This document shows, piece after piece, positions 50,445-57,773 of a stretch of 64,000 nt of DNA. The DNA lies in the NCBI GenBank assembly GCA_963691655.1, contig OY829326.1, positions 142,866,998-142,930,997 of the forward strand, in the 5' to 3' direction. The notes below the pieces were generated by a model. It was not told the DNA's origin. It worked only from the letters and a program-made list of their open reading frames with translations, and did not search any database. This DNA is from Toxonevra muliebris (Eukaryota; Arthropoda; Insecta; Diptera; Pallopteridae). Within the stretch, counting starts at the first letter, position 1; the number at the start of each line of letters is the position of its first letter. Both the position numbers and the translations under genes were made by a program.

Positions 50445-50497
50445 ATGGCAAGAACAACAGCACGTAAGACAAAACACACCCAGGTGGAAAAGTCTGA
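50445..50497 (+). CDS. Putative first exon of a spliced accessory protein
   Basis: An ATG at 50445 opens 17 codons, basic and Thr-rich (MARTTARKTKHTQVEK), that run into the strong splice donor GTAAGT at 50498. The exon ends after two bases of a codon. The acceptor before 57269 supplies the third base and continues in frame. Other GT sites nearby (50464, 50484) would not be in frame. Without splicing this frame stops within about one codon. Supported by sequence logic only. Confidence 0.5.
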
Positions 50498-51149
50498 GTA
50501 AGTTGGAAACAGAAAAAGCCATCTCATATTCTAACAAAATTTATTATTTAAGTTGGAAATAAAACAAAAAAAAAAAAAATAATAATAAAAAATAAAAAAC
50601 CCATCTCATATTATAACATTTATTCTCAATCTCGAATTTTCCAAAAATTGCGGTATACATATACATGAGAACCGCAATTGCGGAACTTATATACATTTAA
50701 TATATATAATTCAGTACATAACATTTTGGCGCATAATTTTTATATATCGTTCTTTTTTCCGCGCATTTTCTATCTCACATATATATTCGCTCTCAAAATA
50801 TATATATCTAAAATTCTCTCAGTCAAATTAAAATTCACCTCGATCTTTTTCGCTTCAAACTTTTATCGAAACTTCACACGCAAAATATTGCAAAGTGACT
50901 TTCAAACAGTTGATAGTACAAAATAATTTGCAGTTTCAATATTCGCTCCAAACATAATTTGAATTCGCCGAAAATAAAAAATAAAGAATCTTTATGATTT
51001 CTAAATGCTCTCACACAGAAAATTAAAGAAGAAGCATAATTTTATTTGTGCATATAAGTTTGTATAACCAAATTTAACTTTCTTTAATTCATATAATACA
51101 ACCCAGTGAGCATGGGAACATGCCATTGGTAGTATATATTGTAAAGTTT

Positions 51150-51715
51150 TCTGATTAATTGAATATTTAAGTACACAGCAACCCCTCGCTCGTGTAATCT
51201 GACTTTGGTATCTAATTTAAAAAAAAAAAAAAAAAAAATTTTTTTTTTTTTTTTTTTTTCTCTCTGCTCGCTCAATATTTCTTTTATTATTAATTGGGTA
51301 TCTAAGTGCACAACAACCTCCCGTTTGTGTAATCGGTCTTAGGTATCCAATATTGTAAGAAATTTAAGAAATATTGTTAATTTGTTCTCAATCTCTAATA
51401 AAAATTTTGGATTTTCTCTACTCATTGATTGAATATCTAAGTACACAGCATCCCCCCGTTTGTGAAATCAATTTTAGGTATTCAATACTTTAAGGAATAT
51501 TGTTAATTTTTTCTCAATCTCTATCTAATCATTGATTGAATATCTAAGTTCGAAGCACCCCCTCGCTTGTGAAATCTTTGGTATTCAATAATTTAAGAAA
51601 TAATTTTAATATTTCTCTCATTCGACTTTCTATTGTCGTTTATTGGATATATAAGTGCACAACAACCTCCCGCTTGTGTAATCGGTCTTCAGTATCCAAT
51701 TATTTTTTAACATTA
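51150..51715 (+). repeat. Five imperfect tandem repeats in the retrotransposon leader
   Basis: Units start with ttgaatatctaagtacaca-like sequence at about 51156, 51294, 51426, 51535 and 51644. Each continues with a C-rich acctcccg, then tgtgtaatc and ggtatccaat. Spacing is 138, 132, 109 and 109 bp; the first interval includes a poly-A/poly-T palindrome (51219-51260). They lie just upstream of the gag start at 51822, where packaging, translation-control or splicing signals would be expected. Confidence 0.75.
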
Positions 51716-57164: not shown

Positions 57165-57268
57165 TAGTAAACGACAACCCATAGTGACTCCCCTTATTTA
57201 ACCAACGTTCATATTCATACTCTATTACTCCAATGTTCACCATAACTAATAATTGTTTATTTCCACAG

Positions 57269-57773
57269 GACAAAGCAGCAGCGGTCAGCTGATTTTACAC
57301 AATGCCGACTGTGCAGTCGTTTACACCCTCTGCGGTACTGCGCTGTCTTTCAAGATATGAGCACTGATCAACGCTATGAAGCAGCACGAGCCAACAAATA
57401 CTGTATAAACTGCTTGGCGACTTCCCACATCACCGGGGCGTGTACCTCCAACGGTAGCTGTTATCACTGTGGTCTTGCGCACCACACGATGTTACATCGT
57501 TCTCGATCGCGGCAGCCTAAAAGGCGTCCTACCTCCAGAGCGAGGCGCATAACACCACCGCACAAGACACTGAGCAGAGACAACCGTCGTCACCGGCCGC
57601 AACAGAACAAGCAACGTACGCTCCACACGCAAGGTGCCAAACATCGACGTATTCGGCGATTATTCAGTACGGCTTATGAAACGCTGCAACAATTACAAGC
57701 CTCGCTCCAGGAGTCTACACCGATGCAGGGGGGCCGGCATGTTGAAGACATGAACTTAATTGAGTTCGACTAA
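57269..57773 (+). CDS. Accessory zinc-knuckle ORF behind a splice acceptor, 3' of pol
   Basis: A 505-nt open stretch directly follows the acceptor ttatttccacag (57257-57268). It encodes three Cys/His knuckles in a row (CRLCSRLHPLRYC, CINCLATSHITGAC and CYHCGLAHHTMLH), then a long Arg-rich tail with SRSRQPKRRPTSRARR, and ends in a Leu/Gln segment. It stops at 57773, about 34 bases inside the 3' LTR. The zinc array parallels the one in Gag but is strongly diverged. With the leader exon 50445-50497 it would total about 185 residues. In-frame ATG at 57357 gives a shorter 138-codon version without splicing. Its position is where errantivirus-like elements carry env, but it has no signal peptide or membrane segment. 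The likely role is nucleic-acid binding; function is inferred. It could instead be a captured gag remnant of another BEL element. Confidence 0.6.
57725..57739 (+). promoter_or_regulatory. Polypurine tract
   Basis: A short G run (gcagggggg) just before the 3' LTR is in the expected place for plus-strand priming. It is interrupted by ccggca next to the LTR, so its exact use is uncertain. Confidence 0.45.

What the first reader, a model, noticed from the sequence alone, without database searches (positions are those of the whole stretch)
50445..57773. BEL/Pao retrotransposon with a probable spliced accessory zinc-knuckle protein
Seen: an open 505-nt frame between pol and the 3' LTR encodes three Cys/His knuckles plus an Arg-rich tail, and starts right at an acceptor (ttatttccacag). 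In the leader, an ATG-initiated 53-nt segment ends at a consensus donor GTAAGT, and the phases match (two bases plus one); alternative donors nearby do not match. Known: BEL elements usually carry only gag-pol; a few LTR elements express env from a spliced RNA. Inference: this element makes a small, basic, zinc-binding accessory protein, a diverged duplicate of the Gag zinc array, from a subgenomic RNA. I know of no described equivalent in BEL/Pao.
Basis: partly seen in the sequence, partly recalled or inferred. Interest (0 to 1): 0.88.

Follow-up and report, generated by a model that had tools for sequence, protein, structure and literature searches.

The report
Fly retrotransposons' hidden spliced zinc protein
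A jumping element in a fly genome carries, besides its usual genes, a small zinc-binding protein gene that appears to be read only from a spliced message, and the same gene with a similar splice layout recurs in many related elements, which suggests that these elements make a regulator of their own RNA.

Summary
The window holds an intact BEL/Pao element (identical 359-bp LTRs, 5-bp target duplication). Between pol and the 3' LTR lies an open frame with three zinc knuckles, a basic linker and a C-terminal helix.

Diverged copies of this gene occur in at least nine families of this genome, and homologues in tephritid, house, stable, horn and blow flies. Pairwise dN/dS is 0.13-0.28 in the 6 of 13 pairs not saturated.

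A phase-2 acceptor opens the frame in 27 of 29 copies. In seven of the eight leader types that could be read, the only GTAAGT follows an in-frame ATG of matching phase. In the eighth the donor has no ATG and the ATG lies in exon 2. One family (F) is unresolved. The frame offset to pol varies, so readthrough is unlikely.

The zinc arrays form one group apart from the Gag arrays, consistent with one old duplication.

No RNA reads were available, so splicing is inferred. I judge a Rev/CERV-like regulator of the unspliced RNA most likely (about 0.4); tandem RNA hairpins in the intron of some families are candidate targets. Ten literature searches showed no such gene in BEL/Pao.

The parts
49497..49501 (.). 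target-site duplication AGCAG, left copy
49502..49860 (+). 5' LTR, 359 bp, identical to the 3' LTR
49861..49878 (+). primer-binding site TGGTCCTTCGAGCC...; complementary to a tRNA-Tyr 3' end (recalled, not tested)
   Evidence: for the letters; tRNA identity recalled
50445..50497 (+). coding part of exon 1 of the accessory mRNA, 53 nt, leaves two bases of a codon
   Evidence: same layout in L019, L020, L023
50498..50503 (+). splice donor GTAAGT, the only GTAAGT of the leader
50498..57268 (+). inferred intron of the accessory mRNA (holds hairpins and gag-pol)
   Evidence: inferred
51155..51703 (+). five tandem stem-loops (51155-51220, 51290-51354, 51425-51489, 51532-51593, 51639-51703), inside the inferred intron
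51822..57164 (+). gag-pol, 1780 aa (DUF1759, RVT_1, Peptidase_A17, DUF5641; rve and Integrase_H2C2 below cut-off)
52926..53120 (+). Gag zinc array (three knuckles)
57249..57268 (+). splice acceptor with pyrimidine-rich tract, ends CACAG
57269..57773 (+). exon 2 of the accessory gene, 167 whole codons and stop, first base completes the split codon
57303..57497 (+). accessory zinc array: three knuckles (CX2CX3HX4C, CX2CX4HX4C, CX2CX3HHX3H)
57498..57629 (+). basic Arg/Ser-rich linker, mostly low-confidence (disordered) in the model
57630..57710 (+). C-terminal helix (residues 121-147)
57727..57733 (+). polypurine tract AGGGGGG inside the accessory frame
57740..58098 (+). 3' LTR; the accessory stop codon lies 34 nt inside it
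58099..58103 (.). target-site duplication AGCAG, right copy

Best explanation
The element is an intact BEL/Pao retrotransposon with a third gene. Its full-length RNA is the mRNA for Gag-Pol. The same RNA, spliced once from a donor in the leader to an acceptor just after pol, encodes a small basic protein with three zinc knuckles, a disordered Arg-rich linker and a C-terminal helix. The gene is an old paralogue of the Gag zinc array, present in many BEL/Pao families of higher flies. The splice layout and the protein-level conservation are supported by comparison; transcription of the junction is inferred. Function is inferred: I think that the protein binds its own unspliced RNA, perhaps through structured repeats of the intronic leader, and lets it leave the nucleus, survive or be packaged, as Rev does in HIV and CERV in the worm element Cer1. 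Confidence about 0.9 that it is a real spliced accessory gene (0.93 before I recounted: one family is unresolved and the seven leaders tested were selected), about 0.4 for the export/RNA-fate function; the score given is for the statement as a whole.
For: The accessory frame directly follows a readable pol end in 15 of 17 copies checked, from families A, B, C, F, G, H, J and L045. Phase-2 acceptor in 27 of 29 copies. ATG-GTAAGT pair in phase 2 in 11 of 14 leaders scanned and in 3 of 5 leader pieces; by type, in 7 of the 8 types with a located 5' LTR, each with a single GTAAGT. The eighth, J (L035/L036), has one GTAAGT without ATG and its ATG in exon 2. Between the window family and L011/L012 the start codon moved from 53 to 8 nt before the donor, phase kept. 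dN/dS 0.13-0.28 in 6 of 13 pairs, the rest saturated. The first knuckle is invariant in the 12 other genomic sequences aligned with the window, yet no Met lies between acceptor and first Cys in 26 of 27 open copies. Offset from pol to the accessory frame is 0, 1 or 2. Homologues in tephritids and calyptrates keep array, linker and helix. In Eurosta a predicted isoform joins host CaMK1 residues to the accessory exon, as if its acceptor were used. Intronic hairpins in families A, A', B. CERV precedent.
Against: No RNA read or peptide was available. Searches for genomic copies of spliced RNA found none: 0 for the window family; for families G/H five 2-mismatch matches, none beside an accessory gene or leader. 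L019 has lost the acceptor. L024, a copy of family B with its 5' LTR, has no GTAAGT in the leader. Family F is unresolved: its 5' LTR was not found, L030 has no GTAAGT, and the one near gag in L025 follows an ATG in phase 0, which would not fit the phase-2 acceptor. Several copies have further AGs in other phases just downstream of the acceptor. A Met 18 residues after the first Cys is the first Met in 23 of 27 rows, so internal starts are not excluded. The hairpins were found in 11 of 27 sources searched, all with family A, A' or B leaders, and their covariation is modest. No significant fold match, no Pfam family. Localisation, export signal and RNA binding were not tested.
Confidence: 0.58

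Rival explanations
1. The spliced gene is real, but the protein acts as a second, freely made nucleocapsid: an RNA chaperone or packaging factor supplied in trans in the cytoplasm, with no part in nuclear export.
For: The array resembles the Gag zinc array in knuckle type and spacing; weak, non-significant profile and fold resemblance to HIV nucleocapsid. The hairpins lie downstream of the donor, the usual place of a retroviral packaging signal (general knowledge).
Against: The element already encodes an NC; the accessory arrays form a group of their own apart from the Gag arrays; whether the C-terminal helix has a Gag counterpart was not tested.
Confidence: 0.3
2. The spliced gene is real and limits or tunes the element itself: a Gag-derived fragment that interferes with particle assembly, as p22 does in Ty1 (recalled).
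For: Related to Gag sequence; separate expression from a spliced RNA would allow dosage control (inference).
Against: It lacks the capsid region through which p22 acts (recalled); only the zinc array is shared.
Confidence: 0.1
3. The spliced gene is real and counters host silencing such as piRNA or heterochromatin factors.
For: Fast-changing basic linker (dN/dS 0.20 to 0.73 in 4 of 5 pairs, one saturated) beside a constrained zinc array.
Against: Fast change of a disordered linker needs no conflict; no host target is known.
Confidence: 0.1
4. There is no splicing: the frame is translated by readthrough, reinitiation or an internal start, or is a decaying relic of a duplicated Gag segment.
For: No RNA evidence; pol and accessory share a frame in the window copy and in L013; a Met is common 18 residues after the first Cys; family F shows no matching donor pair.
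Against: Frame offset 0, 1 and 2 in different copies; first knuckle invariant upstream of any Met in 26 of 27 rows; acceptor and donor phases agree; purifying selection.
Confidence: 0.08

Closest known systems
CERV protein of Cer1 (C. elegans Ty3/gypsy LTR element; PMC10309623: abstract, found passages and section 15 seen)
   Same: Third gene with a 3' ORF, made from a spliced mRNA of the element, nuclear, with a Cys-rich loop needed for its work; required for export of the unspliced genomic RNA.
   Different: Other LTR class; CERV is a large protein with H, M and G domains that shares a peptide with Gag through a cerv exon, not a three-knuckle array; homology was not tested.
sORF1 and sORF2 of MDG1-group elements (412, mdg1; PMC11952523: found passages seen)
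   Same: Small accessory proteins of fly LTR retrotransposons beyond gag-pol, conserved between families.
   Different: Ty3/gypsy class; full-length transcripts showed no evidence of splicing; sORF1 has a possible helix-turn-helix, sORF2 is a membrane fusogen; no zinc knuckles mentioned in the passages seen.
Achilles of Bactrocera oleae (BEL/Pao; PMC4580426: found passages seen)
   Same: Tephritid BEL/Pao element with single gag-pol ORF, long 5' leader with repeats forming a complex structure, Gag zinc array ending in the CCHHH knuckle.
   Different: Only gag-pol is reported and no envelope ORF; no accessory or spliced gene in the passages seen ('splic' occurs 0 times); the reported ~7.5 kb sequence ends with the ORF.
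roo (BEL/Pao of Drosophila; PMC3087523: found passages seen)
   Same: BEL/Pao element with coding capacity beyond gag-pol.
   Different: Extra gene is env, in one ORF with gag-pol; not a small zinc protein.
HIV-1 Rev and HTLV-1 Rex (recalled; passages on Rev in PMC10309623 and PMC11599104 seen)
   Same: Small basic proteins from spliced RNA that act on unspliced RNA through a structured element.
   Different: No zinc knuckles (recalled); function here not tested.

Membership tests
BEL/Pao (Belpaoviridae) element | LTRs, target duplication, primer-binding site and polypurine tract | tested here: met
   359-bp identical LTRs, AGCAG duplication, PBS-like and PPT-like sequence in place; primer tRNA not tested
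BEL/Pao (Belpaoviridae) element | Gag-Pol domains of the Pao type (DUF1759, RT, Peptidase_A17, integrase, DUF5641) | tested here: met
   Pfam hits on three separate pieces; DUF1759, A17 and DUF5641 strong, RVT_1 just above its cut-off, rve and Integrase_H2C2 below theirs
[quoted passage not shown]
   the third gene is a zinc-knuckle protein with no Pfam family; this widens the description rather than excluding membership
Env-like third gene | glycoprotein with signal peptide and membrane span | tested here: not met
   no Pfam envelope family at E <= 1; highest mean hydropathy over 19 residues is 0.05-0.92 in nine family members, far from a membrane span, and R+K exceed D+E in all nine; exon 2 only, no dedicated predictor run
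Spliced accessory gene of an LTR retroelement (kind of CERV, Rev, Rex) | donor in the leader, acceptor after pol, compatible phase, conserved | tested here: met
   7 of 8 readable leader types, the eighth with its ATG in exon 2; family F unresolved; RNA junction itself not testable here
Spliced accessory gene of an LTR retroelement (kind of CERV, Rev, Rex) | purifying selection on the frame | tested here: met
   dN/dS 0.13-0.28 in 6 of 13 pairs, 7 saturated
Rev/CERV-like RNA export regulator | required for nuclear export of unspliced RNA; nuclear; binds the RNA | not testable with these tools
   needs expression and localisation experiments
Rev/CERV-like RNA export regulator | structured RNA target inside the intron | tested here: inconclusive
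   hairpin array between donor and gag in families A, A', B; 14 double-change cells against 5.0 in shuffles, but 10 when partners are slid by +1; absent from the other leaders searched, four of which were checked and have other repeats; no binding data

The most novel reading that the evidence does not exclude
BEL/Pao retrotransposons of higher flies are complex retroelements: they carry an ancient regulatory gene, born from a duplicated Gag zinc array and expressed only from a spliced leader-to-3' mRNA, whose product recognises a tandem hairpin element kept in the unspliced RNA and licenses its export or packaging: a Rev/RRE-like switch that arose independently of retroviruses and of Cer1.
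Probability: 0.33. Interest if true: 0.87.

Novelty: new variant of a known kind. Interest (0 to 1): 0.76.

Why it matters
BEL/Pao is described as gag-pol with at most an env-like gene, and its replication is called poorly understood (PMC8742986, whole text seen). A conserved spliced third gene across fly families would mean that these elements balance splicing against export as complex retroviruses do, and would give an invertebrate model in which a Gag domain was reused as a regulator. It also offers an explanation for a set of unnamed 'uncharacterized' fly proteins in public databases and predicts junctions that existing fly RNA-seq can test at once.

Tried and rejected
Genomic copies of spliced RNA: an exact junction pattern for the window family with up to 3 mismatches gave 0. 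A degenerate junction pattern for families G/H with up to 2 mismatches gave five matches, all with 2 mismatches (the reversed control gave one). None of the five 3-kb loci matches the accessory proteins or the G/H leaders given. A search with the leader DNA alone did not complete. Absence is uninformative, since spliced RNA may not be packaged.

Readthrough or frameshift from pol: rejected, because offsets differ between copies. Repeated origin of the accessory array from each element's own Gag: not supported, because the two labels need one change each on the tree (only 65 columns; the bootstrap had not settled; 13 database rows not counted, one of which, P0007 from Stomoxys, joins the Gag side with support 31/12). 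Capture of a host gene: not needed; several database proteins keep array, linker and helix and end in residues like those encoded by the polypurine tract, so they look like element copies. Fold search of the model: none of 11 matches at E <= 0.001; best were HIV nucleocapsid and Lin28 knuckles at E > 1. A hairpin element common to all families: not supported. The Ceratitis protein P0061 carries a W8 UniProt accession, which I recall as transcriptome-derived; not verified.

Rows dropped: of the fetched loci with a match, L010, L033, L043 and L044 were left out of the acceptor count: the frame is broken, fused to pol, interrupted before the first Cys, or, for L044, its first knuckle does not fit the pattern used. 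L001-L008 repeat places fetched otherwise or were not used. Leaders without a pair (L024, L025, L027, L030, L036) were not in the shuffle test.

Full report
What is there. The window lies in a fly genome of 491 Mb in 96 contigs (G000). At 49502-58098 sits an intact BEL/Pao element: 359-bp LTRs without a difference, target duplication AGCAG, primer-binding and polypurine sequences, and one gag-pol frame of 1780 aa. Its three pieces match DUF1759, RVT_1, Peptidase_A17 and DUF5641; rve and Integrase_H2C2 are below their curated cut-offs. Identical LTRs suggest a recent insertion.

The accessory frame. Downstream of the pol stop an open frame runs from 57246 to 57773. From the acceptor onward it encodes 167 residues: three zinc knuckles, a basic Arg/Ser-rich linker, and a helix followed by a short tail that is encoded by the polypurine tract and the first 34 nt of the 3' LTR. 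AlphaFold2 (mean pLDDT 69.6, pTM 0.42) gives 81-94 per block of ten for residues 11-80, under 50 for residues 81-120 and 70-90 over the helix. No Pfam family matches. A profile of 27 relatives finds HIV-type nucleocapsids only weakly (E 0.017 at best).

Is it a gene? In the same genome the frame has 150 matches at E <= 0.001, all 150 that were scored out of 801 candidates. I did not inspect them all, and many carry stops. I fetched 20 stretches of 10 kb and 18 shorter ones around a choice of them. By sequence the open copies fall into groups: A (window, L009), A' (L011, L012), B (L013-L017, L022, L024), C (L018-L021, L023), F (L025, L026, L029, L042), G (L027, L031), H (L028, L039), J (L035), K (L037), and L041, L045 and L046; the grouping is mine. 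The 13 sequences aligned with the window copy (12 genomic, one Rhagoletis) are 36-57% identical to it. A readable pol end (IVKLC motif) lies directly upstream in 15 of 17 copies checked; in L028 it was not found and in L009 the hit was spurious. LTR pairs around the gene were found in many but not all stretches. dN/dS by the Nei-Gojobori count is 0.13, 0.17, 0.18, 0.21, 0.26 and 0.28 in the 6 of 13 pairs with unsaturated dS; in the other 7 pairs pS is 0.76-0.86 while pN is 0.26-0.43. By pN the second and third knuckles are the tightest part and the linker the loosest. I made no equivalent count for gag or pol.

Is it spliced? (a) The first knuckle is invariant in the alignment, yet in 26 of 27 open copies no Met lies between the acceptor and its first Cys. 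(b) Of 29 copies examined, 27 have a pyrimidine-preceded AG that needs two bases from an upstream exon: exactly 34 nt before the first Cys in 18, 28 nt in 4, 103-106 nt in 4, and in L023, whose first knuckle is damaged, the corresponding site. L019 has lost it and L035 differs. Several copies, the window's among them, have further AGs in other phases downstream. (c) An ATG opens a frame that reaches a GTAAGT in phase 2 in 11 of 14 leaders scanned (misses L024, L025, L027). Of the 6 pieces, one (L034) is no leader; of the other 5, L032, L040 and, read, L038 have the pair, L030 and L036 have not. (d) By type, 8 leaders with a located 5' LTR can be read. Seven (W, L011, L013, L018, L032, L038, L040) hold exactly one GTAAGT, each with such an ATG; shuffled leaders have such a pair in 15-27 of 300. 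In three of the seven the inner LTR end was cut off by the fetched stretch, so the scanned piece includes some LTR. The seven were tested because they had a pair. If all were independent the product would be about 1e-8; with one leader from each of five groups, about 2e-6 (my arithmetic; given the choice, the true strength is less). (e) Exon 1 is 53 nt in the window family, 8 nt in A', B, C (L018), G and H, and 5 nt in K. Between the window family and L011/L012 the leaders are alignable by eye: the old ATG is gone and a new one stands 8 nt before the same donor, phase kept. (f) In the eighth type, J, the leader's single GTAAGT has no ATG, and exon 2 instead begins GTACGATG, an ATG seven codons before the first Cys. 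(g) L019, L020 and L023 combine a leader and gag start of family A with pol end and accessory gene of family C; L020 and L023 keep compatible phases, L019 has lost the acceptor. (h) The offset between pol and the accessory frame is 0, 1 or 2, varying even within family B, against readthrough. Against: L024 (family B) has no GTAAGT in its leader; family F is unresolved, with no GTAAGT in L030 and, in L025, one some 430 nt before the gag frame whose ATG is in phase 0.

Outside this genome. A profile search finds 18 proteins and, with a wider profile, 108. The searches need shared five-residue words. I read 17 sequences, 21 and P0001. Calyptrate members share array, basic linker and a C-terminal stretch of the kind LLSEAIRxLAxVLC. 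Several Haematobia, Musca and Stomoxys models begin MVH, which an 8-nt exon of the kind above would give (inference; no DNA seen). The Eurosta model P0004 joins CaMK1 residues (49-107) to the accessory exon; if it rests on RNA reads, which I could not see, the acceptor is used in cells. Six of the 18 in the first list (P0012-P0015, P0017, P0018) continue into a protease-like stretch whose catalytic DSG/DTG is not apparent (by eye).

Origin. A tree of the zinc arrays puts 13 accessory rows and 9 Gag rows on two sides of a 99/99 branch, one change per label against about 7 in shuffles. So the accessory array looks like an old paralogue that has evolved on its own, not a repeated copy from each element's Gag. 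The tree has only 65 columns and its bootstrap had not settled.

How it may work. Supported: a separate gene, its exon layout, its conservation. Inferred: that the spliced RNA exists and is translated. Inferred with less support: function. Keeping one RNA unspliced for gag-pol and packaging while splicing another part poses the export problem solved by Rev in HIV and by CERV in Cer1 (PMC10309623). A basic zinc protein made only from the spliced RNA is a plausible form of such a regulator. The intron of this element holds five tandem stem-loops before gag. A covariance model searched in 27 sources finds 46 matches at E <= 0.1 in 11 of them: 42 forward ones, in loci with leaders of families A, A' or B, and 4 on the reverse strand. 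In the window and the 8 loci with a known donor the forward ones lie between donor and gag. On 29 distinct rows 14 cells change on both sides against 5.0 in shuffles, 0 of 500 reaching it. But partners slid by +1 give 10 such cells and 5 such pairs against 4, the number of further pair types is not raised (15 against 18.1), and the covariation score is reached by 48 of 500; on the five window copies alone the evidence is weak. The slid versions pair far worse (44% of cells or less against 92%). The hairpins could equally be a packaging signal. Four other leaders have other repeats there, and repeats in BEL/Pao leaders were known (PMC4580426).

What is known. I searched the held PMC library ten times (listings capped). 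I saw passages of PMC3118150, PMC3212995, PMC11952523, PMC11599104, PMC4580426, PMC8220671 and PMC3087523, abstract, passages and one section of PMC10309623, and the whole of PMC8742986. None of what I saw describes a spliced or zinc-knuckle third gene in BEL/Pao. Most subscription papers are not held, and Repbase was not searchable. Hence 'new variant of a known kind': spliced accessory genes of LTR elements are known; this one, in this class of element, is not, as far as searched.

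Noticed in passing
window 48900-49501 and 58104-58530, minus strand: The element sits inside a mariner copy: joining the flanks without one AGCAG gives a transposase frame that continues across the site, with stops and frame changes elsewhere. Two more copies with the same start lie at 14586-15176 (-) and 63469-64000 (+, cut by the window end).
   Followed up: partly
G000:C30:29924-63424: Nine fragments of the accessory gene, each with a TAG, mostly 4.05-4.08 kb apart (one gap 4.75 kb), look like a tandem array with a retroelement piece in its unit.
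   Followed up: no
L019, L020, L023: Recombinant elements: leader and gag start nearly identical to the window family, pol end and accessory gene of another family. L019 also has its hairpin array twice.
   Followed up: partly
proteins P0012-P0015, P0017, P0018: Zinc array followed by a protease-like stretch without an obvious catalytic DSG; possibly a second type of accessory protein or domesticated genes in Bactrocera, Zeugodacus, Musca and Haematobia. Entries of about 300 aa may be of this kind; not read.
   Followed up: no
P0004 (Eurosta solidaginis): Predicted isoform fuses the start of CaMK1 to the accessory exon, a likely case of exon capture through the element's acceptor.
   Followed up: partly
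window 51100-51150; also L011 and L013 leaders: A further stem-loop (CCCAGTGAGCAT..ATGCCATTGG) upstream of the hairpin array recurs with changed loop in other families.
   Followed up: no
P0072 (Eumeta japonica, moth): A full accessory-type protein in a lepidopteran record of 2.8 kb: horizontal transfer or contamination.
   Followed up: no
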